A stretch of 64,000 bases of DNA, taken from contig OZ037917.1 of the NCBI GenBank assembly GCA_964035575.1, positions 372,001 through 436,000 of the forward strand. Direction: 5' to 3'. The notes under the pieces are model-generated. The model was not told the origin of the DNA, did not search any database, and was given only the letters and a program-made list of their open reading frames with translations. A program made the translations under genes and the position numbers. Positions 10,447-63,078 of this stretch are shown one piece after another. The stretch comes from Rhynchopus sp. YZ270_cl-10. Its lineage: Eukaryota > Euglenozoa > Diplonemea > Diplonemida > Diplonemidae. How positions within the stretch are numbered: the stretch's first letter is position 1; each line of letters begins with the position of its first letter.

Positions 10447-10513
10447 GATAAATTGTTTGGAGTAGTGTAGTTTGCCTCGGTTTGTGTTGCCACAGTTTGT
10501 GCAAATCTCCACT
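10447..10513 (+). repeat. stem-loop family A, long form
   Basis: GATAAATTG lead, then TAGTGTAG with TTTGC, inner TGTG/CACA around TTGC, GCAAA, CTCCACT. Nested pairing gives a long hairpin. T-tracts on both sides. Confidence 0.75.
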
Positions 10514-11322
10514 TTTTTTTTTTTTTTGCCAGTCTAAGCTGGGTTAGTATACGAAGGAGAAATATACAGGGATGCGAGGGTATGCGCATTTTATTTTTTA
10601 AAATTTTTGTGATCATTGGTGCTCCTGACGACCCCCATTTTTGCGTACTTCTTGCGTACTTAGTGCATATTTGGTATTTTTTTTATTTCTGGGGCCAATC
10701 ACATGCTTTTTTTTTTCCATGATCATCCAGAATGACGCGTATGGGAGTGTTTACAAAACGCCATTGCCAGCTTCTTATTTGGTTTTTTTTTGTGGTAACG
10801 AAAACGGTTATGAATAGAACCGTAATCTTTTTAAAAAATAAGCTGGTATGAATACGATGAATATCAGAGGCAAATAATTCATCAGAAAAAGAAAAAAATG
10901 AAAAAAGAAAGTAAAAGGAGAACTTATAAATTGGACGATGGGGAAGATTGGGAAAGGGGGAGGGCTTTTTTTGGACATGAATACGTCCCAGTGTTGCTGT
11001 TTGCTTTGTATGAATACCAGAGAGAAACAAAAGAAAAAGAGAGAAAAAAAGAAAACACAACATTTCGGGAAACTCTCAGCACATTTCTTAAAAAAGGCTT
11101 TTTTATCCCATGAGTGTTGTTGTCTTGAAATGTTTCTTCCACATTTTTTTATCCAAAATCGCAAAAGCAATATAAAATCAATTCAATAATTTTTTGGGGG
11201 GAAGTAAGGGTGGGACAAACCTTGCGGTCAGTCTGCACAGCCATAATAAAAAGAGGGGATTTAAGTAACTTGAAGGTTGTAAACGTTCTGCATCAAAACA
11301 AAAAAAAAAGCAAAAAAAAAAA

Positions 11323-11361
11323 GTTTATAAGATGAACCTAAGCTCACATACTTAGTCACCT
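11323..11361 (+). repeat. stem-loop family B
   Basis: GTTTATAAGATGAACCTAAG, short loop, CTTAGTCACCT. An A-tract precedes it. The stem pairs CTAAG with CTTAG and AG.TGA with TCA.CT. Confidence 0.75.
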
Positions 11362-12016
11362 TTAAGAAAAGCGGGAAAACACATAAACATCACACGTAAA
11401 AGAAAAATAACGCGAGGGGGGTTTTTGTCAAAAAAGGGGGGAACGACAAAAAAAAACAAACAAACCACAATAACAAACTCGACCTGCATCCAGGCTCGTT
11501 TTTTTTTCGGTTTCATATGATACTGTCGTAGTCTCAAATGATATCGAAAAATTGTCGAAAACCAAAAAAAAAAAAACAGGTGTGTGTGTGTCAGAGGAGT
11601 TGGTGCACCCTCACGGGATAGTGGGCACCATCCTTCTTCCACAACAAAAAATTTTAAAAAAAGAAAAATTAAAGGATGAAGGCGCTTCTCATGCACACAC
11701 ATCATTTTCAGACAAAAAATAAGACGGTATAAGAGAGAAAGAAAACATTTCAAATGACTGATTTTTTTTTGCCACCATTTTTGGTGAATAAAAAGAAAAA
11801 ACACACCGTGTGTAGGAGGGGTTATGTGTGTAGTATAGACTAAAAGGGGGGTTAAAAAAGAGCAAAAATTAAGTCGTATAATTTCAAGAAAACAAAAAAA
11901 AAAATGCAGACCGGTCAAGAGAATCGTTTGTAAAGATGCATGAGCCTCACGGGTATACATCTTTTGAAATGAAGAGAAAAAAAGAGAGAGAGAAAAAGCG
12001 TTTAAAACCCAATGTT

Positions 12017-12058
12017 GTTTCATATACTAACTATTCTACTGAATAGAAGGTATACTAG
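12017..12058 (+). repeat. stem-loop family E
   Basis: CATATAC, TAA, CTATTC, TACT, GAATAG, AAG, GTATAC: two perfect stems separated by a symmetric 3/3 internal loop. The second (GGGTGCA) hairpin seen in other copies is absent. Confidence 0.75.
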
Positions 12059-12450
12059 AACGAAGTTGAGTTTAAAACCCAATAGGGGGGCCTCGAAATA
12101 TACGTTGAAAGATAATTGCTTTCCTCTTGAGGAACCAAAAATCTAACTTTGTAAAAAAAAAAATATATATACGTGTCTGTAACCCCAAAGGATGTTCTGT
12201 GTTGTACAAAAAAAAAAAAAAAATACACACAATACATCACAACGGGAAGAAGAGAGAGAAAAAGTACAGAAGAAAGAGAAATTACCCTTTCAAAGAGGGG
12301 AAAGGGAGTGCAGTTCCTAGCTTTTTAAAATTTTTGCGCCATATTTGTTTTTTTTTTTTTAGGCAGCAAGATTTTTATAAAAAAATAGCTGGAGAATTGG
12401 TGAGCCACACACATTATACGTGGAGAGGGGAGGAAATTTTGAAAATGAAC

Positions 12451-12510
12451 AGTTGATGCTCACCTCCGGCTGACCCAACTGTACCCTGCCAGTCATCCGG
12501 ATGAAAGCGC
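12451..12510 (+). repeat. stem-loop family D
   Basis: CTCCGGCTGACCCA, then TGCCAGTCATCCGGATGAAA; contains the self-complementary CATCCGGATG. Followed 14 nt later by a family B copy. Confidence 0.65.
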
Positions 12511-12523
12511 AAAAGAAAAAAAA

Positions 12524-12562
12524 ATTATAAGATGAACCTAAGCCTCTCATGCTCAGTCACCT
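12524..12562 (+). repeat. stem-loop family B
   Basis: ATTATAAGATGAACCTAAGC, loop CTCTCAT, GCTCAGTCACCT. One change (TTAG to TCAG) weakens the stem. Followed by an A-tract. Confidence 0.7.
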
Positions 12563-13372
12563 AAAAAAAAAAAAAACACAAAAGGCTGGGAGGATGGGGG
12601 AAATATGAATGAACAGCACTCCTCGACCAGGAACACAGTGACATTCAATGAAAAAGGAAAAAAGAAGATAACAGGTACGTATTACAAAAAAAAAAGGGGG
12701 AGGGGAGAGAAAAAAAAAGTGGGGGCAAAACGGCATCCCTGTCCTTGCAAGGGAAGAGAACAGCAACGCAAGGAGGTGAAAGAATGCCTGGTCTTGCCCA
12801 CAGAGCAGGGGTTAAAAAAAAAGAAAAGAGAAATTTGTTGAAATACTGAAATCTAAGCCCTCTACTACTGCTTAAAATCATCATTTTTTCTAAACAAAAA
12901 AATTTCTTAAAAAAATGAGAGGGCATCAAAAAATAAACAAAAAAACGAGCAAAAAGAAAATAAAAAAATGTTTGCAGCAAAAAGAAGGAGATGATGAAAA
13001 GACTGGAGTTTTCAGTTGACTCCCCCCTTTTTGCCTCTCCCGGGGTTTTTTTGTCACTTCAAAAAAGCTTAAAAATACATTTGTATTTTCCTTCTTTCTT
13101 GCAGTTTGCGTCCCCTCGGGTGTGGTATTCTTGTGTGTTCGAAGAAGGGAGAAAAGGTGTGTAAAAAACCTCAACCCTTCACTATATCTCCTTGCTGCGG
13201 TTCCCTTTGTGCATTTTCTTTTCTGGGAAGAACTTCGAGGAAAAAAAAAAAGCAAGAAAAAGACGAGTTCATCCCCATTTTTTTTTTTTTTTTGAAAAAA
13301 AAATGCTGAAGTAGTGATGCCTGTGTTGCCCACATCATGCAATTTCCACGACACACAACATTTTTTTTTTTT

Positions 13373-13424
13373 GATAAATTGGATTAGTTGTACTTGCCTC
13401 GGTTGTGTTGCCACAGTTGTGCAA
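13373..13424 (+). repeat. stem-loop family A, 3'-truncated
   Basis: GATAAATT GGATTAG lead and the inner TGTGTTGCCACAGTTGTGCAA, then a T-tract where CTCCACT would be. TAGTGTAG is altered to TAGTTGTA. Confidence 0.65.
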
Positions 13425-14922
13425 TTTTTTTTTTTTCCCGTACTTTTTTTAAGTTTCGTGTCGCAGGCTTGAAGAGACTAGCCAGCTTTGATTTTTTTTT
13501 GGGTAGATGGGAGGATTTTCTTGTATTTCTCTTTGTGTAGGTCATTTTCCAGTACGATTCGTCTGCGTTACACAAAAGAAAAAAAGAAGAAAATACTCCA
13601 GGGGTTTCACTTAGAATCCTCCCGTTTTTTTAAAGTTGAAGTTCGCAAAGCAACAACAACAACGAAAAAGGGAGGAAAACGTTATCAAGAAAAAGAAAAA
13701 AGACAAAGAAGAAAAAAAAACTAAGGTCGACGAGGAATGTCTAAGCCATTCCGTATTTGAGTAGCCGCCTCTTAAAAGGAAAAAGAACAGAAAACAAAAA
13801 ATAAAAAATGTTGAAATTGATGAAAAAGAAAATACACCTGCATGTACAGACGGAACAGGTTAACATAAAATGAAAAAGTAAACAGACATGCAAAAAAATG
13901 AGGTTTCATTTTTTGTTTTCGTTTTTTTGCAGAAATTCCACTATTTCGAGCGGGCTTGACAATATTTTTTTTGCAAAAAAAAAAAATAACAATTCATAAA
14001 AAGAAGACAGGGTAAAAAAATGAATGAAAATGTCTCAGAAAACAACCGTTTTTGAAATGGTGATAATTATCCAGACTTTCTTTTCGGACAAAAAAATTTT
14101 TTTGTTGAAGTATGGGCAGAAAAGTATTTAAAAAAAAGGACAGTGGGTAGGAAGTGTACCACTTTGTTTTTTTCTTTTTTTCTTTTTCTCTTTTTTTTTT
14201 TTCGCTAAAAAAATGCGAAGACCAATTTCATGAAACCTGATTGGCACAAGCCCGTGAAACATAGAAGGCGGGGAACATGATAAGGGAGAATGACAACTTT
14301 GGTAGATTGCTGATTCGTTTTGTTGGGGTGCATGAAAAACTGCTGCCGTGTTTTTTTGGTAAGAGTAATGGTATGAAAAAGCACCCAGAAATTTGCAGTG
14401 TTATCTGCAATTTTCCCAAAAGCGTTATCTTTCAAATAGCTCAAAACAACAACAACAAAATCATTGAGATGAATTGTTGAAAATAAGTTTCTTTTTTTTT
14501 TTTGTTCTGTTCCTGTGTTGTGCTCTTTTGTGTGTTTAGAAAATGTGGAAGGGGGAATGATTAAGTTTTTTTTGCAAATAAGATTGACCGCTAAGCCTCC
14601 GCTTTGGGCCAACCCTTTTTGAAGAGAAAAAAGAAAAAAGAAAAAAGGAGAAAAGCTTTCAATGCTATTTCTCATTTCACGAACAACAAAAAAAATCTAA
14701 AAAAAAGTTACAGAGAAAATAAATTCGTCATTGGGATTTAAGAAAAAAAAAAAAAAAAAAAAACAATTTCTCAAATCAATAAAAAAGGTGTGTTAGATAA
14801 ACACCACGACTCTCATGATTATACATCTTGTAAATAGAGAAAAAAAAGAGACAAAAACTAGACCGGAGCAACCAGGACGCTTAAATGGAGATATCGTTAA
14901 AAAAACAGAGAGAGAAACGTTG

Positions 14923-14966
14923 GTTAAGATGAGACTAAGTCCTAGCACCACTCTGCTCAGTCACCT
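14923..14966 (+). repeat. stem-loop family B, divergent
   Basis: GTTAAGATGAGACTAAG then CTCAGTCACCT, with a longer loop. Confidence 0.55.
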
Positions 14967-15265: not shown

Positions 15266-15307
15266 CTCGTGAGGTGAACCTAAGTCTCTCTCATCACTTA
15301 GCCACCT
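15266..15307 (+). repeat. stem-loop family B
   Basis: CTCGTGAGGTGAACCTAAGT, loop, ACTTAGCCACCT. Here AGGTGAAC faces AGCCACCT, with changes on both sides of the stem. Confidence 0.6.
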
Positions 15308-15710
15308 ATAACAAACAAAGTATACGTATGCACACGATACCTACCTACCAAAGGTAGCATAAATATGGGTTGTTTTAAAAAAAAAAAGAGGGGGACAAAC
15401 GCTAGCTGCTCGCTGCTGATAAAAATGATAATGTCGTACAAAAGGGAATGTGCACATTTCTTTATGCACAAACCCTTTATAAAATGAGGGGAAAGATCAA
15501 AGCCTCAAATGCTTGGTGGTGCTAAAAATAATCAAAAAGGGTGAGGTAGAGTAAAAAGGAAAGCATGAAGGATGTGAAGAGCGTCAAGGTGATTATAGGC
15601 AAGCACACATCTGTGTTGCAAACAAAAAACAAAGAGAAATGAGGGGGTTTGCATAAGATGACACTCAGCCGGTATTTTAAAGTCACCTTTTGATGACAAT
15701 TTACAAAGAA

Positions 15711-15775
15711 GTTGAAAAGTGCAAAAACGCCTCACCATTCATTGACCACGCCGATGAGTGGTGGGAGGGGGCACC
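15711..15775 (+). repeat. stem-loop family C, long-loop variant
   Basis: GTTGAAAAGTGCAAAAACGC at the start and GGGGGCACC at the end keep the AGTGC/GCAC closing stem. The interior is an unrelated hairpin (CCATTCAT ... ATGAGTGG). Confidence 0.55.
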
Positions 15776-15835: not shown

Positions 15836-15873
15836 ATTTCATATACTTTCTGTTTGAATCGAAGGTGTAATGA
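15836..15873 (+). repeat. stem-loop family E, degenerate
   Basis: ATTTCATATACTTTCTGTTT, GAATCGAAGGTGTAAT; the inner stem is largely lost. Confidence 0.4.
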
Positions 15874-16127: not shown

Positions 16128-16189
16128 GAATTGTTTGGAGTAGTGTAGTTTGCTTCTGTTGTGTTGCCACAGTAGTGCAAATCTCCACT
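16128..16189 (+). repeat. stem-loop family A, long form
   Basis: GAATTGTTTGGAGTAGTGTAG, TTTGC, TGTGTTGCCACA, GTGCAAA, CTCCACT. A T-tract precedes it. Confidence 0.75.
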
Positions 16190-16714: not shown

Positions 16715-16776
16715 GTAGTTGCTCAATGCGCCTCCGACTGACCCACGTACGATGCCAGCCATCCGGATGAAAGCAC
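16715..16776 (+). repeat. stem-loop family D
   Basis: CTCAATGCGCCTCCGACTGA, CCCACGTACGATGCC, AGCCATCCGGATGAAAGCAC. Nearly the same core as at 40167. Confidence 0.65.
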
Positions 16777-17500: not shown

Positions 17501-17535
17501 GTTTATGAGATGAACCTAAGCTCGCGCTTAGTCAA
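17501..17535 (+). repeat. stem-loop family B
   Basis: GTTTATGAGATGAACCTAAG with loop CTCGCG and CTTAGTCA. First of three B copies within 150 bp. Confidence 0.7.
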
Positions 17536-17607: not shown

Positions 17608-17647
17608 GTTTATAAGATGACCCTAAGCCTCTCTCGCGCTTAGTGTG
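17608..17647 (+). repeat. stem-loop family B
   Basis: GTTTATAAGATGACCCTAAG, loop, GCGCTTAGTGTGA. The last part departs from GTCACCT. Confidence 0.65.
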
Positions 17648-18278: not shown

Positions 18279-18332
18279 GATAATATTGTTGGATTAGTGT
18301 AGCTGCCATCTAGACAGATAGACATCTTCACT
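18279..18332 (+). repeat. stem-loop family A, CTTCACT subtype
   Basis: GATAATATTGTTGGATTAGT GTAGCTGCCATC, then CATCTTCACT. The 3' arm is CTTCACT instead of CTCCACT. Confidence 0.6.
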
Positions 18333-18363: not shown

Positions 18364-18409
18364 GAAAAATTGTTGGAATAGTGTAGTTGCCACCTGTGCA
18401 AGCTCCACT
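18364..18409 (+). repeat. stem-loop family A, short form
   Basis: GAAAAATTGTTGGAATAGTG TAGTTGCCACCTGTGCAAG CTCCACT: GTGTAG/CTCCAC plus TTGC/GCAA. A clean example of the short consensus. Confidence 0.75.
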
Positions 18410-19277
18410 GTTTTTTTTGTTACTTGCCATTTTTCACATTTTTTCTTTGGGTGATAAATAAACCTGCGCTGGACACAAAAAAAAAAAATGCCTCGTTTTT
18501 TTTAGCAGATTTAAGAAATAGCTGAAATTTTAACGATGTTTGATCATATATTTTTTTTTCGCAAAACCCAACAAAAAAATTGAAAGGACAAGCGCCTCTA
18601 CAGACACGGATACCGGTTCCATGGCCCTGGTCTTGTACAGTTTTTTTTTTTTTTTTTTTTTTTTCCCTCTTCTTTTTTGGATATTTGTACTTACGATATT
18701 TGAATTATTGGGTGCAGGGCGCGGTTTCTGTGCTCTTGCAAAATACGTTTTGTTGGATCGACAATCACTTCTTTTCTACTTCCATTTGTCGATTTGTTGT
18801 TTGAACAAATTAACATTTTCCCAAACGCTATTTGAAATAAAGACAAAGAACAAGATACCTTAAAGCAGAATCATGTAGGGGGATGAAAAAAAAAAAAATG
18901 CAAAAACGCCGCAGTGGACGTGGTCAAACAAAACACAAAATATTTTTTGAGGATTTTGTATTTCAAAAAAAAACCCCATGGTGTGGACCAACGGAAAAAA
19001 AAACGTCACAAAAAATGCACTTCCCACCTTGGGTGACTCTGCAACACAAAAAAAATGGACCACAAAGAGAGAGAAAAAAAAGGTGGCAAAGTGAGCCGCA
19101 CAACCACTAGCTACATTGATGTGAATGAGTGTAACTAAAGAGGGCAGCATGCCATCAGCTGTGGAACCAGCACACTTGGGAGTCTGAACCAACCCAAAAT
19201 GCACCACGTTCGCTCCGTTTCCTGTACCAGAGGTCAATTAAAAATACGACTTTTGTACAGATCTCAAAGCAAATAAA

Positions 19278-19321
19278 GTGAAGTTGATAGTGCAAAACGC
19301 CTCTGGGACGCAGGCACTGAC
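19278..19321 (+). repeat. stem-loop family C
   Basis: GTGAAGTTGATAGTGC, AAAACGCCTCTGGGACGCAG, GCACTGAC. Reference copy: AGTGC/GCACT closing stem, alternative GCCT/AGGC. Confidence 0.75.
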
Positions 19322-20856
19322 AATAAAAGAAGTTGGTATGACCGAAGCCTTGTTTGCTTGGTCACAAAAAAAAAAGGGGGGGGGGGGAAATGTGAATGGG
19401 CCTCTCGGCGTGAATAGGGAGTAAGTTGCGTTAGCAGGGGGAGGAGGGTTTTTGGTTGCAAGACCGGGAGAAAAAGAAAGAAAAACAAAAAGAAAATGTG
19501 AATGACGAATGTGCCTCTGATAGCGCACATACATCTTAGAAAAGAGATTTACGTTGTGCGTTTAAAAAAAAAATAATGACAAAAACGTTAAAAACGTCAA
19601 AAACGTTAAAAAGTCGACAGCGCAGGCTGGCAACTACAGACGCAGACGCCACTGAAAAGAAGAAAAAAAAGAAAATGAAAAATGCTTGCCTACCACACAT
19701 CAGGCTTTTGCGCTACCCAACTTAGGCTGACTGTAGCAAAAATAATAAAATGGGCGGAAAACAAAAAAAAAAAGAAACACTAAAAACGGGGCAAAAAAAA
19801 CCCCCCATCACAGAACAGTCTCCACTGTTTTTTTTATTTTATTTTGGAAAAAAAAAACGTTAAAAAAGAAAAGCGAGCTGCATTTGAACCATCCCACATA
19901 TAGCTCATTCAATTGGTGGCGCTTCCCAAAAACCCCCCCCATAAAGCAGATGTAAACACGCCTTAAGTGCGTTGAATACGTGAAGGGGTAAAAGAGTGAA
20001 GGAGGGTTTGAACGGGAGTTGCCACCCACGGCTATGCATGAGCAAGAAAGCCAGCCAAATAAAAAAGGCTCGCCAAAGTATTCAAGGTCCGAGGTCGAAA
20101 AGAAAAATTGACCCCCAAACAACAGTGGAAAAAAAAAATAGATTGGTTTTGAAAACAACAACTAAAATAAAAAAAACGCTTTTTATGGGAATGTGGTGAA
20201 ATTGGCGGGAGAAAAAAAATTTAGAGGAAGGCGGCGAGTTTTCGGGGTTTTTTCTTCTTTGCTCTTCTTCTTCGTTTCGTAGGCCAAATGGACCCTGATA
20301 GGACCAAAATTGACCACACCATTTCTTTGGCTAAGAAATGGTTAAGATAATATTTTCAATCGAAAAGATGGAGTTTTTTTTTGTCCATCAGCGTTTTTTT
20401 TGAAAAATCTTTTGCTTTTTTTTTGCACATAAAAAGTAGGGTACGAGAAAGAAGAAGGGAAAAAAAAGGTAGTTTATATTATGTAGGCCGGTACGCTCTG
20501 CAATCACTCTTTAATGGTTCTGGGGGGATGTATTTCCCCCCCTCATCCTTGATAACTGTGCAGACCAAAAGAAGGGGGGGGAAACATCAATAAAACTAGG
20601 CAAGTGAAAAATAAATTCCGTAGACTTTCCATTCAGAAAAGAAGAGAAAATCACACACTGAAAAGAAATACTGAAAAGATTAATGTGCCCCATCCCATCC
20701 GCGAACACATACACATCTTTTTACCACTATCCGTTATGTTGTGCTGTAACACGTTCGAACGCTGGGTTTTGGAGTTAGACGGCCTCTTCTAAGAAAGGGA
20801 AGGACATGAACTTTTTTTTATAAAAAAATGAACTTTTCAAAACAAAAGTTTTTTTT

Positions 20857-20892
20857 TAGATAAACCTAAGCCTCTCATTGCTTAGGTCACCT
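20857..20892 (+). repeat. stem-loop family B
   Basis: TTAGATAAACCTAAGC, loop CTCTCATT, GCTTAGGTCACCT. One extra G before TCACCT. Confidence 0.65.
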
Positions 20893-21357
20893 TAAAACAA
20901 ACAAAAATGAAGGCTTCAAAAGATGGATGGGTCGCTATGGACAAAATAACAAACATCTTTTTAACAATAAAGCTCGCAGGACTAAGGCTTTTTTTTGAAT
21001 AGCCGTGTGTAACGAAAGTACTAAACCTGGTTTTTTTTCAATTTTAGCAAGATCAGAAATAGATCGAGGAAGAAAAAAAAGTACAAAAAAAAACATAAAA
21101 TACTTAGGGACGTTTCCCGAATGTGTCAGAAAAAATAAAAACAAAGAAAGACTGCTCGAAAGATAGTTGCGCCCGCCAGGGAACAATCTAGCCTTTCTGC
21201 AATCGGTGTCACGTGCAGACGTTAATTTCAGCGGGGAAAAAAAATGATTCGGGTTTCTGTGCTATAAAAAAAATGTGTGTCTCTCGATGCTCACACACAC
21301 ACCACAGAACGCCCCGTATCAGCCACTGATAAATGTTTTTTTTTCTCTTACAAAAAT

Positions 21358-21401
21358 GTGAAGTTGATAGTGCAAAACGCCTCTGGGACGCAAGCACTGA
21401 C
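21358..21401 (+). repeat. stem-loop family C
   Basis: Like the 19278 copy except GCAAGCACTGA, where G to A breaks the alternative GCCT/AGGC pairing but keeps AGTGC/GCACT. Confidence 0.75.
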
Positions 21402-22215: not shown

Positions 22216-22253
22216 TGAAGTTGGTGCAAAACGCCTCTGGGACGCAGGCACTT
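22216..22253 (+). repeat. stem-loop family C
   Basis: TGAAGTTGGTGCAAAACGCC then GACGCAGGCACTTA. Four bases (ATAG) are missing from the lead. Confidence 0.65.
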
Positions 22254-23775: not shown

Positions 23776-23814
23776 GTGAAGCATAGTACAAACGCCTCTG
23801 GGACGCAGGGACTG
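23776..23814 (+). repeat. stem-loop family C, weakened stem
   Basis: GTGAAGCATAGTACAAACGC, then GACGCAGGGACTGA; the closing stem is reduced to AGT/ACT. Confidence 0.6.
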
Positions 23815-23890
23815 AAAAAAAAATACTCCGTAAAGAGAAGAAAAAAATCAAAACTGAAAACTTTAATGAAAGAGGCATTGGCTTTTTTTC

Positions 23891-24926: not shown

Positions 24927-25275
24927 TGGCTGTCCTGGTTCTTCGTTTTACCTTATAAAAAAAATCAACAAAGGAATTGCTTCAAGACCAACAAGGGGAG
25001 GGGAAAAGAGGATATTGTGTATAACAACCAACACAAAAAAAAGAGGTTGGATTGTGCAAAGAACACAAACAAAAAGTAAGGGATATTTTATTGGGAGGGG
25101 GGGGGGGGGGGGGGGCAAATGCCACTAGTTGGGTACCTTTCACCTCTTCTTATTATTAGCTGTTTTTGCTGTCGATTTTTCGCATCACTTTTGACAGAGA
25201 TTTTGACAACAAAACAAAAAAATAGCTATTTTTTTTTAAAGTGGGGAGGAAGGAAATAAATTTTCAATGTCCGGC

Positions 25276-25308
25276 ATTAGTGTAAACACCTGGGATGTGC
25301 TCCACTAT
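25276..25308 (+). repeat. stem-loop family A, minimal
   Basis: ATTAGTGTAAACACCTGGGA TGTGCTCCACTAT; lacks the TTGTTGG lead. Confidence 0.5.
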
Positions 25309-26066: not shown

Positions 26067-26108
26067 CAAGGTTGGAATAGTGTAGTTGCCACATGTGCAA
26101 GCTCCACT
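26067..26108 (+). repeat. stem-loop family A, short form
   Basis: CAAGGTTGGAATAGTGTAG TTGCCACATGTGCAAG CTCCACT; differs from the 18364 copy by one base inside the loop. Confidence 0.75.
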
Positions 26109-27522: not shown

Positions 27523-27565
27523 GATAATCTGTTGGTGTAATGTAGCCATCCAGACAGTCTTCACT
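27523..27565 (+). repeat. stem-loop family A, CTTCACT subtype
   Basis: GATAATCTGTTGGTGTAATG TAGCCATCCAGACAGT CTTCACT. Confidence 0.6.
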
Positions 27566-27586: not shown

Positions 27587-27625
27587 TGTGTTGGATTCGT
27601 GTAGCTACCAAACAGAGTCTTCACT
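27587..27625 (+). repeat. stem-loop family A, CTTCACT subtype
   Basis: GTGTTGGATTCGTGTAGCTA CCAAACAGAGT CTTCACT, 21 bp after the preceding copy. Confidence 0.55.
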
Positions 27626-27766
27626 TTAGGGGGGGTGTAGTCTTAGGGGTGGCGAAGGGGATAATTACCTCCCTCCTCGCCACTCCAATTTGTTGTTTCT
27701 TTTCGACAAGCTGTTGGCAGGAGTTATCCTGTTAGAAGAAGAAGACAAAGAATGAAGAAAATAATT

Positions 27767-27807
27767 GTTTCATACACTATCTATTCTACTGAATAGAAGG
27801 TATAATA
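27767..27807 (+). repeat. stem-loop family E
   Basis: GTTTCATACACTATCTATTC TACT GAATAGAAGGTATAATA. CATAC instead of CATATAC; the inner stem is intact. Confidence 0.7.
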
Positions 27808-28385
27808 AAAGAACAAAAAAAAAATTGTGTTTAATGACAAATAAGGAAGCCCTGCCTCTCCTGGTGGTGCGAGCGCCCAAATACGCTTCGTGAGGGCTGG
27901 ACTGCCTATTTGCAACAATCGTCCTCTTACAAGAACGGGGTAATCTGTCTATTTTGTTTTTATTATTATTGGTCGACTATCACTTTATACCGCTGATATA
28001 AAGATTGTTGTAACTTTTTTTTTTCAACGCTGTTTTTAACTTTTTAATTTGTTGAGCAACCGCAATACTGGGCCATCCTTCGTCTCTCCGTGTTCCTGTG
28101 TTCCTGTGAGAGCTTACTGAGAGCAAGTGAAAAAGAAGAAGAAAAAAACTCTCTCCGTTTCATAGATGGCCCAAATACCGACAGTCTTCATTTTTCTACA
28201 CTCCTTTTTTATTGATATTCTTGAAAAATTATGGGACGAGAAATAGAAAAAAAAAGAGAAAGATTGAATGGGGCACTCCAGGTTCCCATAGATTTTAGAG
28301 CAAACGGGTGTGACGATTGCAAGAAATATATGGAAAGAAGAGATACCAAAACACTGATGTGGGGGGAAGAGAAAAAAAAAAAAAA

Positions 28386-28429
28386 GTGAAGTTGATAGTG
28401 CAAAATGCCTCTGGGACGCAGGCATTGAC
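28386..28429 (+). repeat. stem-loop family C
   Basis: GTGAAGTTGATAGTGCAAAA TGCCTCTGGGACGCAGGCA TTGAC. C to T in ACGCC and GCACT to GCATT (still pairs with AGTGC by G.U). Confidence 0.7.
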
Positions 28430-28818: not shown

Positions 28819-28853
28819 GATAACTTTGTTGGAGTAGTTGTGCAAGCTCCACT
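28819..28853 (+). repeat. stem-loop family A, internally deleted
   Basis: GATAACTTTGTTGGAGTAGT TGTGCAAG CTCCACT; the GTAGTTGCCAC segment is missing. Confidence 0.55.
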
Positions 28854-30155: not shown

Positions 30156-30170
30156 TTAAAGAATTTTTAT

Positions 30171-30201
30171 TGTAGTGTAAGCATCTGAGGAAGAGCTCCA
30201 C
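30171..30201 (+). repeat. stem-loop family A, fragment
   Basis: TGTAGTGTAAGCATCTGAGG AAGAG CTCCAC, just outside the piggyBac-like element. Confidence 0.5.
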
Positions 30202-30407: not shown

Positions 30408-30450
30408 GTAAAGTTGATAGTACAAACGCCTCTGGGACGCAGGCACTAAC
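30408..30450 (+). repeat. stem-loop family C, weakened stem
   Basis: GTAAAGTTGATAGTACAAAC GCCTCTGGGACGCAGGCACT; AGTAC faces GCACT. Confidence 0.65.
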
Positions 30451-30559
30451 ACAAATGCAAAAACAAGGTAAGAAGAGAAGAAAGTCAACAGAAAAGTTAG
30501 ATGATTGCTTAACTTGTTGGGCTTAGCTGTTCAATAATGTACATGTTTTTTTTTTTTTT

Positions 30560-30607
30560 GAAAAGTTGGTTTGTATTAGTGTAGACACGCAAGGATGAAC
30601 TCCACTA
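30560..30607 (+). repeat. stem-loop family A, GATGAA subtype
   Basis: GTTGGTTTGTATTAGTGTAG ACACGCAAGGATGAA CTCCACT. Same subtype as at 51325 and 58032. Confidence 0.65.
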
Positions 30608-30660
30608 TACTTTTTTTCTTCTTCGGTATATGGCTCGATTGCGATGTAAGTATATATTTT

Positions 30661-30722
30661 GATAAATTGTTGGAGTAGTGCAGTTGCCTCGGTAGTGTTG
30701 CCACAGTTGTGCAATCTCCACT
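30661..30722 (+). repeat. stem-loop family A, long form
   Basis: GATAAATTGTTGGAGTAGTG CAGTTGCCTCGG, TGTTGCCACAGTTGTGCAAT CTCCACT. Confidence 0.75.
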
Positions 30723-41406: not shown

Positions 41407-41428
41407 AAATCTTTATTTTTTTTTTTTT

Positions 41429-41491
41429 GAAAAATGTTTGGAGTAGTGTAGTTGCCGCGGTTGTTTTGCGACAGTTGTGCAAATCTCCACT
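41429..41491 (+). repeat. stem-loop family A, long form
   Basis: GAAAAATGTTTGGAGTAGTG TAGTTGCCGCGG, TTTTGCGACAGTTGTGCAAA T CTCCACT. Confidence 0.7.
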
Positions 41492-41782
41492 GTTTTTTTT
41501 TTTTCTCCCTCCAGGTAAATAATATTAGACTCAACGTTGCGACAAAAGAGTCTGCGCAATTCAGATGTGTATTGCGCGAAAAAGAAGAATAATTTATGGT
41601 AGTGGCACATTGAAGCATGGGGTATGAGGGGTATAGCGTGTCATTGCTTCAATGAAGAATACAAAAGAATACGTGACACTTTCAAATAACAGAATAATTC
41701 TTTCCGTTTTTTGTACCAAATGCTTGGAATGGTAGGTACAAGAAAAACAAAAGGGGATGGGGGGGGGGGAAATGGACGGTAC

Positions 41783-41816
41783 AAGATGAACGTAAGTCTC
41801 TCGAGTTTATTCACCT
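41783..41816 (+). repeat. stem-loop family B, divergent
   Basis: AAGATGAACGTAAGTCTCTC GAGTTTATTCACCT. Confidence 0.5.
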
Positions 41817-42206
41817 TGGACACAAAATCGTTAGAAAAAAAAAATGAATTTTACACAAATCGTTGCAGACAATACAGCATTTTTGCGTTTATTTTTTTTT
41901 TTTTTGTTTTGAAAAATTTTTTTTTTTGGAAAGCTATCGTAGCGTTGCAACATTACGTACAAAACAACTACTCACATTTCCACTATTTCTTCATTCAAAG
42001 GGAGCTAACCAGCATTTATAGGTAATGTGAGTACCTTTATATCATGTGGAAGAGGTGAGTGGGGAGGAATTTTAAAAAAGGCATGTTTTCCCCCCTCAAG
42101 AAACCCCGCTGTTTATTGCTACTGTTATAACAAAACAGAAAGGGGAAAATGAGGGGGGTCGGATGGGTTTTTATGAAGTTTTTTTTGGTGTTGTTGTTTT
42201 TTTTGA

Positions 42207-42243
42207 AAACTTGGTTGTACCACCCTAGAGTGTGCTCCACCAT
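42207..42243 (+). repeat. stem-loop family A, TGTGCTCCAC subtype
   Basis: GAAAACTTGGTTGTACCACC CTAGAGTGTG CTCCAC; resembles the copy inside the nuclease gene at 62299. Confidence 0.55.
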
Positions 42244-42622: not shown

Positions 42623-42670
42623 GTTTGTAAGATGAACCTAAGCATCTCGAGCTCTCGTGCTTAGTCACCT
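42623..42670 (+). repeat. stem-loop family B, expanded loop
   Basis: GTTTGTAAGATGAACCTAAG C, 15-nt loop containing CTCGAG, GCTTAGTCACCT. The stem is perfect while the loop is enlarged. Confidence 0.75.
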
Positions 42671-43092: not shown

Positions 43093-43731
43093 GGTGCATG
43101 ACCGGCTGTACCGTGGGTGGACACCCCAACCATGCAGTCCTACCTTCATTTCGTGATTTTACATCTGAACAAATATGAAAAGATTCAAAAAAGAGGAAAA
43201 CGTACTTTTGGGTGTCATCAAACCAACTGTTGTCATGTTGAGAAAATGGAGGGTATTTTTTTCCCCACCCGCTCTGTGCCATTTTATTGTTTTTTCCCTC
43301 ATCACAAAGTGGGTTGGGTAGGGGGTTGAGAGAACACCGTTTTACAAAAAAAGATGTCGAAAAAAGAAAAAGAAAAACAATAATTGCAGGGGGGAAGACA
43401 TCACCATTTTTTTCTTCGAAGTATACTCAAAAAAAAAAAGGGCGTGTTTTATGTGATGATGGAAGGGTTAAATAAGTTTGCCTTACAAGACAATAAGGGT
43501 AAGACGGGAGAGACAAAAAAAAATACATCCATCAAAACAAGATTCACTGTTCCTCATTAACCCCTCTAAAAAACCTCCTCTTTCATCCCACACGACGACA
43601 CTTTTCATGACATGACAATCAATTAATTAACGCTTTGTTTGGTATAGTGCTTGTAACTAACGTTTACCATGTCATTGACAAGCGCCGTCGTGAGTCCCTA
43701 CAAGACATTAATTTCCTTTTTTTTTTTAAAA

Positions 43732-43774
43732 GTGAAGTTGATAGTGCAAACGCCTCTGGGGCGCAGGCATTGAC
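43732..43774 (+). repeat. stem-loop family C
   Basis: GTGAAGTTGATAGTGCAAAC GCCTCTGGGGCGCAGGCATT GAC. Confidence 0.7.
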
Positions 43775-45256: not shown

Positions 45257-45293
45257 GTTGAGTTAATCTTAAGCATCTCGTACTTAGTCACCT
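45257..45293 (+). repeat. stem-loop family B, divergent 5' arm
   Basis: GTTGAGTTAATCTTAAGCAT CTCGTACTTAGTCACCT; 3' arm intact, 5' arm altered. Confidence 0.5.
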
Positions 45294-46915: not shown

Positions 46916-47104
46916 AAGCAAGGGAAGATTATGGTGTTTGATGGAATACTATAGTTGCCACTGGGGGTTTTTCTCCCCCCTTTTTTTCCCTCTCTCGAAA
47001 GCAACGTTTAGTCCCTGTTTTTTTTTTGTATCACCGCACTGCTAAGATATTCTCATTATGTAGAAAGCCAAAAAAAATGAGATCTACCAGCAGTAAAAAA
47101 AAAA

Positions 47105-47526: not shown

Positions 47527-47583
47527 GTTGTTGATGCAGGCACCTCCAACTCAGAGAAAAAGAGAGGAAAAAAAGGGGGAAAA

Positions 47584-47626
47584 ATTATAAGATGAGTCTA
47601 AAAGCCTCTCGTTTGCTTAGTCACCT
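47584..47626 (+). repeat. stem-loop family B
   Basis: ATTATAAGATGAGTCTAAAA GCCTCTCGTTTGCTTAGTCA CCT. Confidence 0.65.
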
Positions 47627-47860
47627 TGTATATTGTGGGAAGGATATTTATTTTTTTCAAAAATAAACGAGCCGCAATATTGATTACAAAACTCCACTAT
47701 AAATCAGTGGACACTGTAGAAAGATGCAGGATGTAGTGAAAAAAAAGGTGGGCAGAAAAAATGAGAACTTCCACAATAGCAAAAAAAAAAGTCTCCACTA
47801 TGGGTACTTCTCTATGTATGGCTACTAAATAATATACACAAAAAGAGAAACGAGATAACA

Positions 47861-47901
47861 GCTTATAAGATGACCCTAAGGACTCTCATGCTTAGTCACC
47901 T
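47861..47901 (+). repeat. stem-loop family B
   Basis: GCTTATAAGATGACCCTAAG GACTCTCATGCTTAGTCACC T. Confidence 0.7.
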
Positions 47902-48324
47902 TAACAAAAATAAAAACACCACAATCTGAATCAACAATCCCATTTGGGTATGCTCGAGAATGTGCTGGAATATGGTCGAGAATCTTAGTACGGCCCTCTG
48001 GCAATAACACACAATAGGTTTGGGGTGCAGACAGTGGTCCCCATATAGTTGTGAAACGCCTTCTGTAGACGAGGTGTACAATACTCGTACCATTTTGCTT
48101 TTTTTTTAAAAAAATCGACTGTCTTTCAGACAGTCCTTTAGGTTTCTCTGTTTGTTCAACTTTTCATTGGTTAAAGGTTGAACAAACTGTGGCAGATCTT
48201 TCTGAAGGGGAAAAAAAAAACACAATCACTGTTTGTCATTTATTTGACACAGCTATACGCGGCGCACACCAGCACTTCTGTGGTGTATTACCTTTTGTAG
48301 TGTTTTTTTATTTTTACTTTTTTT

Positions 48325-48394
48325 GATAAATTGTTTGGAGTAGTGTAGTTTGCCTCGGTTTTGTGTTGCCACAGTTTTGTGCAAAATCTCCACT
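48325..48394 (+). repeat. stem-loop family A, longest form
   Basis: GATAAATTGTTTGGAGTAGT GTAG, TTTGC, TTGTGTTGCCACAG, TTTTGTGCAAAA, T CTCCACT. Paired runs are lengthened on both sides relative to the 30661 copy. Confidence 0.75.
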
Positions 48395-49115: not shown

Positions 49116-49452
49116 TAGGGGAGGAGTGTATCAAAAACGAAGTATTTTTCAACCATGTATTATCAAATAAATTGATAGCATGGAAGAGGAATCCACAAAA
49201 ATGTTTCCAACTTTAAAAAAAAATGAAAAGCAAAATGTGCAAAGCGCCATTTTGCGAGGTACTACGCTGATTAGAAGAGGGGAGGGGAAAAAAACCACCC
49301 CTTTTTTTGTGCAAAATGAAGTACGCCTCATCGCGTGCAAACACGAATCGTTTATACGAGGCAACAAATTGTGTTAGATAGAATTGTTTGAGCTTTTTTT
49401 TTACAGTAGCAGAGGTGATGTCGAATAAATTGTCGCCCTATTCATCAAAATT

Positions 49453-49512
49453 GTTTCATATACTAACTATTCCACTGAATAGATGGTATATTAGGGTGCA
49501 CTAAATGTACCC
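49453..49512 (+). repeat. stem-loop family E, full two-hairpin form
   Basis: As at 38767, but CTATTCCACTGAATAG and TATATTAGGG; both hairpins intact, changes fall in loops. Confidence 0.8.
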
Positions 49513-50054: not shown

Positions 50055-50100
50055 GTTAAGTTGATAGTGCAAAAACGCCTTCAGAGCGCAGGGGCACTGA
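50055..50100 (+). repeat. stem-loop family C
   Basis: GTTAAGTTGATAGTGCAAAA ACGCCTTCAGAGCGCAGGGG CACTGA. Closing stem kept, loop sequence changed. Confidence 0.65.
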
Positions 50101-50428
50101 TACTACGAGAAAAAAGGGAATGAACAAAACACCTTTTGTATCGCTGTCGCTTCCTCAGTGTTGGGTGTCTACACCACTCCAATAAAAGAAAACATCCGCC
50201 CCGAATTATTAACAGTGGCAGATCGGTTGGAAGGGGATTTTCACCCCAAAAAAATGAGGGCTTTTTCCACTACCAGGGATACAAAAAAATGTTGTTCGGA
50301 TGAAGTAATAATAGAGTGAACAGAGAGATAATTTGAGAATTTGTTCTTTTTTTTTTTTTTTTTTTTTTTGAAAAGTATTGTCCAACGGGGAGAGAGGGGA
50401 AAATAAAAATCTAATAAAAATTGTGAAA

Positions 50429-50944: not shown

Positions 50945-51324
50945 AAAAAGAAAGGAACGTTGCTTCCTTCTTTCCCTATCTCGTTATTAGATAACCTTCC
51001 TCGATGGAGCGTCAACGGTTGAGAGGTTGGGGAGAAGGTAACAACGGAAGAGACAAGTGCACAAGGCACAATAACAAATTGTGCAAATAAAAAAAAAAAT
51101 AAAAAAAATCTCGCAGAAAGAAAAAAAAATGGGGGGGAAAAATAGGCTAACAAAAGAACTGTGAACCCTTCCTCTGAATCGCGCCTTTTTTATGAAGGTC
51201 AATCTGCACAGTGCTAGGATGCAATAGTCCACACTGAACACATCTTCCAAAAAAAGAAACGCGGATAAGAAGGAGACAGTCGCTGCCCTAGTTGTGTATT
51301 TTGCTTTTTTTTTTTTTTTTTTTT

Positions 51325-51370
51325 GAAATTTTTTGGTATTAGTGTGGGCACCCAAAGATGAACTCCACTA
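51325..51370 (+). repeat. stem-loop family A, GATGAA subtype
   Basis: GAAATTTTTTGGTATTAGTG TGGGCACCCAAAGATGAA CTCCACTA. Confidence 0.65.
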
Positions 51371-51574
51371 TACTCAAGTAATAGCAGGGGGGGGGGACTT
51401 TAAAAAAAAAATTTTTGATGAAATTTCCGGGAGCGTTTACCACCCTTTGTCTAGACCCTTTTTGTTGTGTAAAAAAGGAAAAGAGGAAACAATAAGATAC
51501 CAATAAAAAAGGAAACTTTTTTTTTCTTCGAGAGTTTGTCAAAAAGTTCTTTTTTATGATTTTTTGTCTCGTTT

Positions 51575-57032: not shown

Positions 57033-57067
57033 ATTGTAAGATGAACCTAAGGCACAGCTTAGTCTGA
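57033..57067 (+). repeat. stem-loop family B
   Basis: ATTGTAAGATGAACCTAAGG CACAGCTTAGTCTGA; a 10-bp spacer separates it from the MITE at 57080. Confidence 0.6.
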
Positions 57068-58031: not shown

Positions 58032-58092
58032 GAAAACTTTGTTGTATTTTTTTTTTTGTATTAGTGTAGACACCCGAGGATGAACTCCACTA
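58032..58092 (+). repeat. stem-loop family A in the nuclease 3' flank
   Basis: GAAAACTTTGTTG, T-tract, TATTAGTGTAGACACCCGAG GATGAA CTCCACTA. It lies about 40 bp past the stop codon of the large nuclease, so is probably in its 3' UTR (antisense orientation). Confidence 0.7.
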
Positions 58093-61339: not shown

Positions 61340-61347
61340 GATGGTGC

Positions 61348-61376
61348 CGCCTGAAGGTGTATTGTGAGGGGGGAAA
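61348..61376 (-). promoter_or_regulatory. possible splice acceptor upstream of nuclease ATG
   Basis: Minus strand TTTCCCCCCTCACAATACAC CTTCAG, 11 nt before the ATG. Confidence 0.35.
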
Positions 61377-61453
61377 CAGAGAAACGAAGGTAACGAAGAA
61401 GGAGGGGGCTGTTTTGCAAACTTGACTATTTTTTTTTTTTTTTTGCTTTACTC

Positions 61454-62114
61454 CAGGGTATTAGGGTGAAAATCCAAAATTCCGGAAAAAACTGGTTTTT
61501 CTGGTTTTCTCTCCTGGGTGGCGAAAACTAGTGTTTCCGGTGAAAACCTCCACCGTTGACGGACACAGTCACCTTTTTCGGGGGTGGGGTCGTCTTATCC
61601 AGGAATCCAGATTTCAAGATTGGGGAGGTCAGCTTGACCCTCCCCAATCTCCCCTCAAAATATATTTCGGCGCTGCTGACCAGGGTAGACATTGGGAACA
61701 TAGGGACTGTATATTTTTGCGGAGCAAAAAAAAATAATATAAATGGCGCCGCAGGCGAAAAATTTTGAGGGTATGATGTAGAAATCTAGCTTTTTACACC
61801 ACAGAGCCACTCCGAACCCTTTTTTGCGGAGCAAAAAATGAAAAATGGCGCCGCAGGCAAAAAAAAATCAAGGAACAGCCATTTCCCAAAGGCACTCCCG
61901 TGGTTCAACCATGGTTCTACCAGGCGGGGGGAAAATGCGGGGAAAAAAATCGAGTCCGCCCTAATCTGGGGACGACATTTACAGAAAGGCCTGGTGAAAA
62001 GTGTCGGTTTTTTTTTTCCCTCCAGATTTCTCTGTTTTTTTTTTTTTTTTTGAAAACCAGTTTTTGGAAAAACTGGTTTTCAAAACCAGTTTTTTTAACC
62101 ACCCTAATACCCTG
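61454..62114. mobile_element. hAT-like non-autonomous element with 8-bp target duplication
   Basis: 661 bp; perfect 15-bp inverted ends CAGGGTATTAGGGTG / CACCCTAATACCCTG; flanked by CTTTACTC at 61446-61453 and 62115-62122. CAGGG ends with an 8-bp duplication are hAT hallmarks. Subterminal AACTGGTTTT/AAAACCAGTT repeats could be transposase-binding sites. An internal segment (TTTTGCGGAGCAAAAAA ... GGCGCCGCAGGC) is tandemly doubled. No transposase frame. It sits between the large nuclease gene and the next nuclease unit. Confidence 0.85.
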
Positions 62115-62210
62115 CTTTACTCTAAATACAATTTGTGATAACAGGCTGATCTTATTTCCGCCTTTTTTAGATACGTGATTCTACCTCACAAAATGATGCA
62201 AAAAAAAAAA

Positions 62211-62232
62211 AGAGAGAGAGAGAGAGAGAGAG
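62211..62232. repeat. AG dinucleotide tract
   Basis: Eleven AG units just downstream of the stop codon of nuclease unit 2. Confidence 0.8.
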
Positions 62233-62242
62233 TAATGCTTTT

Positions 62243-63078
62243 TTATACTACGTTACCACCCTTCTTCTTTTTCTTCTTTTTATTCTTTTTCTTCTTTTGA
62301 ATACTTGGTTGCGTTAGTGTAGCCACCCTATAGTGTGCTCCACTATTACTTTTCTTTTTTTCCACCCGCTTGAAGGATTTCGCTCGCCGCATCATCTCCT
62401 GCGAGTCTTCGAGCACCCTCAGAAACTGCCCATTAGCAGTGAGGGCCTCCCGCAGAGTGCCGTAAAGGGTAATGAGGTGAACCGTGTCGAGAGCCGCGTA
62501 CTGGCATTGCGCGATTGAGAGTGGGCGGATGGCCCAGTTCGACCGTGTCATTTTCTTGCTCTTTGGCATTTCGATTCCTGTGAGGGTGGTTTAAAATCGC
62601 AAGAAAAGAAAAAAGTAGGGATACCTAAAAACTGTTGCATAACTGCCTTCAGACCCATTTTATTCCCTTCGCCTGTAACGTACTTTGCGGCGATATATGT
62701 GTCGAAGAGGTGCGGGATGGTGACGCCGTAACGGTTGTGGAGGAGTTCGAGGTCTTGGCCGGCTGAGTGTAGGACGAATACGAGGTCTTGCCGTTGGAGG
62801 AAGTCACGCATGAGTCCTATGTTCAGGTCCTCGAGGGTGTCAATCAGGTATGTATTCGGACCGATCTGCACCTGAAGCACGCACAACCGAAACACCCCAG
62901 GCCGGCTAATAAACTCAGAGTCCATGCCCGCAATCTGTGATTGGGGAGCCCCCACAGGGCCCAATGCTTCAATCATCTCGAACAAAGCTTGGTCCGACCC
63001 CACCCATGTGTACGGCAGACCACCAGACCCCATACCACCAGACCCAACCGACAGAGACTGGCCAGAGTGTTCTCTCAT
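62243..63078 (-). CDS. DEDDy 3'-5' exonuclease, unit 2
   Basis: Exons 63078-62625 and 62577-62243; 262 residues from MREHSGQSLSVGSG. Exo I (IAGMDSEFIS), Exo II (VFVLHSAGQDLELL) and Exo III (QCQYAALDTVHL) are all present, so it could be catalytic. The intron is at the same codon as in the large nuclease (QFLG/IEMPK). Another in-frame Met at 63150 would add MRRANGSSKRGKKKKKK, but that stretch is the tail of the neighbouring unit 3, so I prefer 63078. Fusion to unit 3 cannot be excluded, as the frame is open between them except for one TGA. The C-terminal about 35 residues (SNSGAH... and a Lys-rich run) are encoded by a family A stem-loop and its A/T-tract, so the native end has been replaced. 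About 72% of the way along, the family fold ends and only this tail follows. Confidence 0.78.
62299..62345 (+). repeat. stem-loop family A inside coding sequence
   Basis: GAATACTTGGTTGCGTTAGT GTAGCCACCCTATAGTGTG CTCCACTA, antisense to nuclease unit 2 and translated as its last residues before the Lys run. Confidence 0.7.
62578..62624 (-). other. intron of nuclease unit 2, 47 nt
   Basis: GTATCCCTACTTTTTTC ... CACCCTCACAG; TTTTAAAC lies 14 nt before the acceptor, as in unit 3, and could be the branch region. Confidence 0.9.

What the first reader, a model, noticed from the sequence alone, without database searches (positions are those of the whole stretch)
10447..62345. More than 60 short stem-loop elements in six families, all in one orientation
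By eye I find about 20 copies of family A, 23 of B, 11 of C, 3 of D, 7 of E and 3 of F between 10.4 and 62.3 kb, and not one in the opposite orientation. Random insertion should give about half in each. The host genes on both sides read on the minus strand, so in their transcripts every element would appear as its complement. Either the elements arrived by a strand-biased route (e.g. reverse splicing or priming on nascent transcripts), or orientation is selected because the strand is transcribed, or the region is itself a source of small structured RNAs. I know of no described system with six hairpin families this dense and polarised.
Basis: partly seen in the sequence, partly recalled or inferred. 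Interest (0 to 1): 0.88.

Follow-up and report, generated by a model that had tools for sequence, protein, structure and literature searches.

The report
Strand-locked hairpin ends of LINE retrotransposons
The small hairpins scattered through this flagellate-like genome include thousands of tiny copies of the tail ends of jumping genes (retrotransposons), and nearly all examined point along the direction in which the surrounding genes are read, which suggests that these jumping genes may choose their landing strand by transcription.

Summary
The window has 62 hairpins on one strand and one weak partial match on the other. Patterns for five families match about 18,600 places in this 152-Mb, diplonemid-like genome, equally on both strands, but in blocks. 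On oriented sequence, elements read 158 sense to 2 antisense.

They are not a hairpin system of their own. Families H and A are 3'-terminal stem-loops of LINE retrotransposons: the hairpin starts 10-13 nt after the stop codon of the LINE ORF and is followed by A22 or a T run. Most copies in hand are hairpin-only. One filled site has an 8-bp direct repeat and three empty paralogues.

The polarity is the new part. LINE-A fragments are 18 sense, 0 antisense and hairpin-only A copies 68/0; LINE-H-type bodies are 8/8, other reverse-transcriptase genes 10/6, H copies 69/7. Best reading: target-primed insertion largely confined to the template strand of polycistronic transcription units. Selection and replication polarity remain rivals. 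Families B, C, E, F and G were not tied to a LINE.

The parts
10445..10513 (-). B hairpin element
   Evidence: nhmmer
11325..11362 (-). A hairpin (3' end type of LINE-A)
   Evidence: LINE-A link in L051
12016..12059 (-). F hairpin element
12453..12508 (-). G hairpin element
12525..12562 (-). A hairpin
13298..13349 (-). B hairpin element
13371..13425 (-). B hairpin element
14925..14966 (-). A hairpin (weak)
15270..15307 (-). A hairpin
15708..15733 (-). C hairpin element (weak)
15836..15871 (-). F hairpin element
16129..16189 (-). B hairpin element
16715..16775 (-). G hairpin element
17503..17534 (-). A hairpin
17610..17644 (-). A hairpin, interrupted by another insert
18285..18332 (-). E hairpin element
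18367..18409 (-). E/B hairpin element
19277..19320 (-). C hairpin element
20855..20893 (-). A hairpin
21358..21400 (-). C hairpin element
22216..22253 (-). C hairpin element
23776..23815 (-). C hairpin element
25274..25308 (-). H hairpin (3' end type of LINE-H)
   Evidence: LINE-H link
26070..26108 (-). E/B hairpin element
27526..27565 (-). E hairpin element
27587..27625 (-). E hairpin element
27766..27807 (-). F hairpin element
28385..28428 (-). C hairpin element
28825..28853 (-). E hairpin element (weak)
30165..30201 (-). H hairpin (weak)
30408..30447 (-). C hairpin element
30557..30608 (-). H hairpin
30659..30722 (-). B hairpin element
32469..32507 (-). H hairpin (weak)
32946..32976 (-). 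C hairpin element
33207..33249 (-). E/B hairpin element
33708..33746 (-). A hairpin
34297..34344 (-). F hairpin element
34398..34438 (-). A hairpin
37810..37843 (-). A hairpin
38766..38813 (-). F hairpin element
40013..40058 (-). F hairpin element
40172..40226 (-). G hairpin element
40888..40935 (-). C hairpin element
41371..41406 (-). A hairpin
41427..41491 (-). B hairpin element
41781..41817 (-). A hairpin
42202..42243 (-). H hairpin
42625..42670 (-). A hairpin
43731..43773 (-). C hairpin element
45260..45293 (-). A hairpin
46939..46963 (-). B hairpin element (weak)
47527..47551 (-). G hairpin element (partial)
47585..47627 (-). A hairpin
47863..47902 (-). A hairpin
48323..48394 (-). B hairpin element
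49452..49499 (-). F hairpin element
50055..50100 (-). C hairpin element
50161..50187 (+). weak partial H-like match, the only one opposite
   Evidence: 17.9 bits; doubtful
51322..51371 (-). H hairpin
57034..57064 (-). A hairpin, interrupted by another insert
58052..58092 (-). H1 hairpin 40 nt after the stop of the exonuclease-type ORF
62296..62346 (-). H2 hairpin about 200 nt past the stop of an exonuclease-type ORF

Best explanation
Shown: families A and H (H1, H2) are the 3'-terminal stem-loops of LINE (non-LTR) retrotransposons; most copies in hand are hairpin-only, 40-65 nt long; they are mobile (filled and empty paralogous sites); and they lie sense to the local gene cluster. Inferred for families B, C, E, F and G: the same origin from other LINEs (shared stem or 3' end, 5' truncation in C and G, homopolymer flanks). 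Mechanism, inferred: the LINE protein binds the 3' stem-loop, as in stringent-type LINEs, and primes reverse transcription on a nick in an A or T run. A sense insert means that first-strand synthesis started on the template strand of transcription. In this genome most DNA seems to lie in long one-way transcription units. LINE-A-type machinery seems to prime only there, perhaps because polymerase pausing or R-loops at homopolymer runs expose that strand. Passing polymerase, or repair coupled to it, may also cut the growing cDNA short, which would explain why little more than the bound hairpin is copied.
For: LINE link: L049+L048 is one 916-aa open frame with RVT_1 (E 4.3e-21), a stop, 13 nt, H1 and A22. 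L050 is the 3' end of a 1747-aa-ORF LINE: stop, 13 nt, H2, A22; L051 is the 3' end of a 1462-aa-ORF LINE: stop, 10 nt, hairpin A, T run. Four of the 100 listed A hairpins (C1:494782, C4:968130, C5:110962, C5:1201113) and two listed H hairpins (C1:636551, C1:1349144) sit at LINE C-terminal ends. Hairpin-only: 0 of 52 A copies compared have LINE-A body in the 40 nt upstream; 2 of 43 H copies have the LINE-H1 segment. Mobility: an H insert in L006 with direct repeat CAAAGAAA and three distinct empty paralogous sites; a B insert in one of two beta-tubulin paralogues. Direct repeats of 8/8 in 4 of 36 copies against 1.2 expected, p=0.013. Polarity: 158/2 sense, of which 17/0 in 8 of 14 loci picked for a gene of known strand; elements and genes change strand together on C2; A 68/0, LINE-A 18/0, H 69/7, B 77/5. 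Not polar in the same units: LINE-H-type bodies 8/8, other reverse transcriptases 10/6, one ~1-kb repeat 4/3. T runs exceed A runs only about 1.0-1.5 fold.
Against: LINE-A copies are sense even when long, so the truncation part of the model is not needed for them. Antisense hairpin-only copies exist: H in L047 and B in L046; H in L045 sits inside a 705-bp inverted-repeat element. Direct repeats are not significant at fixed offsets in any family. B, C, E, F and G were not tied to a LINE, and two other LINEs examined (L052, L053) end without such a hairpin. Repeat pairs outside the masked hairpins were 269 same-strand to 88 opposite; that set mixes gene paralogues and unmodelled hairpins and was not sorted, so non-polar controls rest on few families. 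In one search, 28 of 96 A, 20 of 96 H, 18 of 100 B, 4 of 22 LINE-A, 4 of 20 LINE-H-type and 13 of 29 other places were undecided; its reference (C and G hairpins) assumes that these mark gene direction, checked only in the window, C2 and eight loci. Some LINE-A places may be duplicates of one another. No RNA data exist here.
Confidence: 0.55

Rival explanations
1. Post-insertion selection: hairpins land in both orientations, but antisense copies are purged because in that orientation they disturb a polycistronic transcript (premature processing or termination, or double-stranded RNA with thousands of sense copies).
For: Bias is near-total in dense gene clusters; a few antisense H and B copies survive. 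Whether this organism has RNA interference was not examined.
Against: LINE-H-type bodies, three of which were seen to carry hairpin H (L044, L048, L050), lie antisense as often as sense (8/8) and other LINEs 10/6. The bias holds in a 45-kb stretch with few ORFs and for copies that match the search pattern exactly.
Confidence: 0.3
2. Replication polarity: insertion occurs on one arm of the fork, and forks run with the gene clusters.
For: Gene clusters and replication can be co-oriented in kinetoplastids (recalled). Blocks are up to hundreds of kb long.
Against: LINE-H-type bodies and other LINEs in the same blocks are not polar. Direction of replication could not be measured here.
Confidence: 0.12
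3. The hairpins are working RNA signals (3'-end, polyadenylation or trans-splice elements) kept in sense because the transcript uses them.
For: Several elements lie 10-200 nt after stop codons (window 58052, 40 nt; c2a 29679, 45 nt). A, C, G and H fold better on the transcript strand in most copies.
Against: Presence varies among close paralogues, many copies are far from ORFs, B, E and F fold better on the other strand, and A and H are LINE tails.
Confidence: 0.06
4. RNA-level insertion (reverse splicing, as an idea for introner-like or euglenozoan nonconventional introns), which would be sense by necessity.
For: Euglenozoan nonconventional introns are hairpins, and one newly gained in Euglena agilis gapC has 8-nt direct repeats (PMC4770533, passages), the same length as at the H site here.
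Against: A direct repeat at an otherwise empty site and a shared LINE tail point to DNA-level target priming; no splicing data.
Confidence: 0.05

Closest known systems
Stringent-type LINEs with a 3' stem-loop (zebrafish ZfL2; PMC4176376, abstract and outline seen)
   Same: LINE RNA ends in a stem-loop recognised by its own protein, with general recognition of the stem and specific recognition of the loop. H1 and H2 share the outer stem and differ in the loop.
   Different: Here the stem-loop alone is a very common product, and orientation is locked to gene direction. Binding was not tested.
SIDER retroposons of Leishmania (PMC2689281 and PMC11520807, passages seen)
   Same: Truncated retroposons in one-way gene clusters of a euglenozoan, with more sense than antisense copies (about 4-fold in gene clusters; 82% of SIDER2 in 3'UTRs).
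   Different: SIDERs are far longer (recalled, about 0.5 kb) and relate to a 79-nt signature; between polyadenylation and splice sites they are mostly antisense. A copies here are 68/0.
Human L1 orientation bias (PMC5717806, passages seen, abstract among them)
   Same: The strand of insertion depends on transcription; a sense insert is one in the template strand.
   Different: The opposite sign: in human cells transcription-coupled repair lowers sense inserts; here sense is nearly all that was seen for these families.
Introner elements of Amoebophrya (PMC7789003, passages seen) and euglenozoan nonconventional introns (PMC4770533, passages; PMC12621601, abstract and three sections seen)
   Same: Short hairpin-forming repeats, often with direct repeats; the Amoebophrya genomes also have co-oriented genes.
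   Different: Those are introns in genes; these lie mainly outside long ORFs and end like LINEs.
MITEs
   Same: Short, non-coding, hairpin-forming, very abundant.
   Different: No terminal inverted repeats in the H insert examined: the paired arms are inside and a one-sided 3' tail follows.

Membership tests
LINE-derived retroposon (5'-truncated LINE end or SINE with LINE tail) | 3' end shared with an element that encodes reverse transcriptase | tested here: met
   A in L051 (same open frame as RVT_1 at C9:1093204); H1 in L048/L049; H2 in L050. For B, C, E, F and G not established
LINE-derived retroposon (5'-truncated LINE end or SINE with LINE tail) | target-site duplication | tested here: inconclusive
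   perfect 8 bp with three empty sites in L006; 4 of 36 perfect v 1.2 expected; no significance at fixed offsets
LINE-derived retroposon (5'-truncated LINE end or SINE with LINE tail) | 3' homopolymer or simple tail | tested here: met
   A22 in L048 and L050, A20 in L047; T run after A in L051; flank composition. Hairpin copies also have A- or T-rich 5' flanks, so tail and target are not always separable
LINE-derived retroposon (5'-truncated LINE end or SINE with LINE tail) | variable 5' truncation | tested here: met
   long and short forms of H, and of C and G by eye; but most copies stop at the hairpin base, not at random
SINE | internal Pol III promoter derived from tRNA, 5S or 7SL RNA | not tested
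   only a negative Rfam scan of the window and of L043-L045
SIDER | length near 0.5 kb (recalled) | tested here: not met
   elements are about 40-65 nt
SIDER | relation to the 79-nt trypanosomatid signature | not tested
   not searched for
MITE | terminal inverted repeats | tested here: not met
   L006 H insert begins TTTAGTGGAG and ends CCAAGTTTT; other families not examined for this
nonconventional intron or introner | removed from transcripts of genes | not testable with these tools
   needs RNA-seq; elements lie mainly outside ORFs of 180 aa or more, with a few inside such frames near their start

The most novel reading that the evidence does not exclude
A group of LINEs, LINE-A foremost, integrates only into the template strand of transcribed DNA, so transcription itself sets the strand of target priming. 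Their main product is a hairpin-only copy some 40-65 nt long, among the shortest retroposons, whose orientation is a genome-wide fossil record of transcription direction.
Probability: 0.4. Interest if true: 0.9.

Novelty: new variant of a known kind. Interest (0 to 1): 0.74.

Why it matters
How a LINE chooses the strand to nick and prime is, as far as I know, studied through modest biases (human L1, Leishmania SIDER). A LINE family that is 18/0, with hairpin-only copies 68/0, beside LINEs that are 8/8 in the same gene clusters gives a natural contrast that can separate insertion from selection. It may also give a practical tool: orientation of these hairpins would map polycistronic units in a genome without RNA data. 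[quoted passage not shown]

Tried and rejected
Convergent strand switch at L044: first read as proof that orientation flips within 400 bp; withdrawn, because the opposite H there is attached to a LINE fragment.

Known RNA family: no Rfam match in the window or in L043-L045.

Pure target-sequence asymmetry: T and A runs are too nearly equal.

Fixed-offset duplication test: nothing significant; a variable-offset test on 36 H/B-type copies gave modest support.

Strand of folding as a general rule: A (33 v 6), C (19 v 2), G (19 v 0) and H (22 v 5) fold better on the transcript strand; B (3 v 19), E (10 v 21) and F (4 v 10) on the other. RNAalifold consensus on MAFFT alignments was weak and was not pursued; no covariance model was built.

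Organism: beta-tubulin against PDB was uninformative; the homologue search failed; 18S searches failed. Diplonemid-like rests on the spliced-leader sequence (the euglenozoan motif was recalled), a GTATG intron read by eye and gene clusters (papers).

Gene-direction calls on C2: before offset 75 kb nine scored ORFs are minus and three plus (30060, 57033, 59594), the three left unexplained; after it all 16 are plus. The listed places of each pattern search are the first 100, not a random sample.

In print: ten paper searches (one search was rejected for a word) did not list a paper on hairpin-only LINE copies with such polarity; this covers only the held open library, with the terms used, and the lists shown.

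Full report
What is there. The window is C85:372001-436000 of a 152.4-Mb, 126-contig genome. It is eukaryotic: minus-strand ORFs at 1-9.3 kb and 54-64 kb, including a cyclin and 3'-5' exonuclease domains, enclose 45 kb of AT-rich DNA with few long ORFs. The genome has 736 matches to a euglenozoan spliced-leader 3' half (motif recalled), and one unit reads CCAACGATTTCTAAAGCTACAGTTTCTGTACTTCATTG followed by GTATG. With one-way gene clusters this looks like a diplonemid. D. papillatum is described with unidirectional arrays of five up to 120 genes (PMC10161547, passages), and three diplonemids have GTATG as the commonest 5' splice site (PMC12621601, section). The species is not identified.

Check of the observation. 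Profile models, grown from typed seeds over the sequences in hand, find 63 elements in the window, 62 one way and one weak partial match the other way. The 62 are on the strand of the window's genes once the hairpins are read as the genes are. Genome-wide the patterns searched match 9305 (A), 2856 (H), 2651 (B), 2108 (C) and 1729 (G) places, split evenly between strands, against 0-16 for reversed patterns. The counts are of the patterns and so are probably low for the families.

Polarity follows genes. In 200 kb of C2, nine of twelve scored ORFs are minus before offset 75 kb and all sixteen plus after it. Families A, B, C, F, G and H occur on both sides and change strand with them, with one antisense B. 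In the window, C2 and fourteen loci picked for a tubulin or DEAD-box gene, elements are 158 sense and 2 antisense; in those fourteen loci alone 17 and 0, in eight of them. Among 500 listed copies on C1-C9, 328 of 358 agree with the nearest copy of another family within 25 kb; 310 have at least four neighbours within 60 kb, and 297 of these agree with the majority. Of the 13 that do not, the 12 printed are H (8) or B (4).

What they are. Three LINE 3' ends end in these hairpins. L049+L048 is one 916-aa open frame with reverse transcriptase (RVT_1, 4.3e-21), a stop, 13 nt, hairpin H1, AATACAACCAAGTTTTC and 22 A. L050, the end of a LINE with a 1747-aa open frame, has a stop, 13 nt, H2 and 22 A. 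L051, the end of a LINE with a 1462-aa open frame, has a stop, 10 nt, hairpin A and a T run. A shorter LINE piece in L044 ends like L050. H1 and H2 share the outer stem and differ in the loop, and the C-termini of their LINEs are about 34-46% identical. Four listed A and two listed H hairpins on C1, C4 and C5 lie beside LINE C-terminal ends. Most copies in hand have no LINE body: 0 of 52 A, and 2 of 43 H compared extend upstream of the hairpin base (L044 and c2a 47920). L052 and L053 are other LINEs without the hairpin.

They move. Among four paralogous places on C1 (near 165.95, 167.85, 170.96 and 172.9 kb), the one in L006 has a 48-nt H insert flanked by CAAAGAAA, and three lack it (two of the five aligned rows are the same place, since L006 and L007 overlap). 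One of two beta-tubulin paralogues has a B insert, and a related T-flanked hairpin is present in L007 and absent in L005. Eight-base repeats beginning CAAA are exact in 4 of 36 copies, against 1.2 by permutation (p=0.013), and 7 or 8 of 8 in 12 against 7.7 (p=0.016); fixed-offset tests were negative.

Which part is polar. With C and G hairpins as reference for direction (the nearest ones on both sides must agree), LINE-A C-termini are 18 sense, 0 antisense and 4 undecided of 22. Hairpin-only A are 68, 0 and 28 of 96; H 69, 7 and 20 of 96; B 77, 5 and 18 of 100. LINE-H-type C-termini are 8, 8 and 4 of 20, and other reverse transcriptases 10, 6 and 13 of 29. LINE-H-type bodies differ from H hairpins (p=0.0005) and from LINE-A (p=0.0007). 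The more distant of the LINE-H-type bodies (37-46% identity) were not all seen to end in H. A 1-kb repeat in the same units is 4 to 3 by the pairwise strands; all other repeat pairs of that call, hairpins masked, are part of a total of 269 same-strand and 88 opposite, an unsorted mix of gene paralogues, unmodelled hairpins and other repeats. So polarity is not common to all LINEs here; it belongs to LINE-A and to the hairpin-only copies.

Exceptions looked at. L045: H inside a 705-bp element with 34-bp inverted ends, in a region whose four other modelled hairpins are the other way. L048: LINE-attached. L044: LINE-attached. L046: a hairpin-only B in a T run, antisense. L047: a hairpin-only H with 20 A and an AAAAGTA repeat seen by eye, antisense. 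C2:202159 B lacks the usual tail. The other minority copies were not fetched.

Mechanism. Stringent LINEs bind their 3' stem-loop (PMC4176376, abstract), which fits a hairpin as the minimal unit. A sense insert is one primed on the template strand; in human cells transcription-coupled repair acts against such inserts (PMC5717806, passages). Here they dominate. I infer that priming needs the template strand of transcribed DNA for LINE-A and usually for the H and B hairpin copies. That cDNA is cut short by transcription is a guess that would explain why hairpin-only H is polar while LINE-H-type bodies are not; it is not needed for LINE-A. Selection is the main rival and cannot be excluded without polymorphism data.

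Against what is known. Leishmania SIDERs are sense about four times as often as antisense in gene clusters, but mostly antisense between polyadenylation and splice sites (PMC2689281, passages). A new nonconventional intron of Euglena agilis has 8-nt direct repeats (PMC4770533, passages), an interesting match in length with the H site and no more than that. I rate the finding as a new variant of a known kind.

Noticed in passing
window 1-7355, minus strand: Three neighbouring ORFs encode a secreted or membrane-like protein made of about 26-aa repeats (78-nt period).
   Followed up: no
window 31111-31315: Tandem array of 41 exact AGCCA units.
   Followed up: no
window 32689-32903: A 215-nt stretch with near-identical copies in L037 (99.5%) and on C2 (97.6%), all in the same orientation to genes: perhaps another recent polar insert.
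   Followed up: no
window 45861-46484, plus strand: LINE fragment with a weak RNase H match (E 1.5e-4, below the curated cut-off), antisense to the genes; a 98% identical copy lies on C2.
   Followed up: partly
window 35027-37075: Large element with inverted arms of about 500 nt (about 93% identical).
   Followed up: no
window 17610-17644 and 57034-57064; c2a 51200; L038 near 3413: Several A hairpins are broken after about 6 nt by another sequence with TAATCTAATCA or a near form at its edge, as if a second element prefers this hairpin.
   Followed up: no
L043 (C1:1392501-1393500): Spliced-leader RNA genes in short arrays on several contigs, with isolated single copies as well.
   Followed up: partly
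c2b 53934-66714 (C2): Tandem gene copies share elements at fixed places (G about 133 nt after each of three stops), so those inserts probably predate the duplications.
   Followed up: partly
many contigs, e.g. C30, C38, C74, C88: 68 tubulin-domain matches, many with identical scores, dispersed and in long-period arrays.
   Followed up: no
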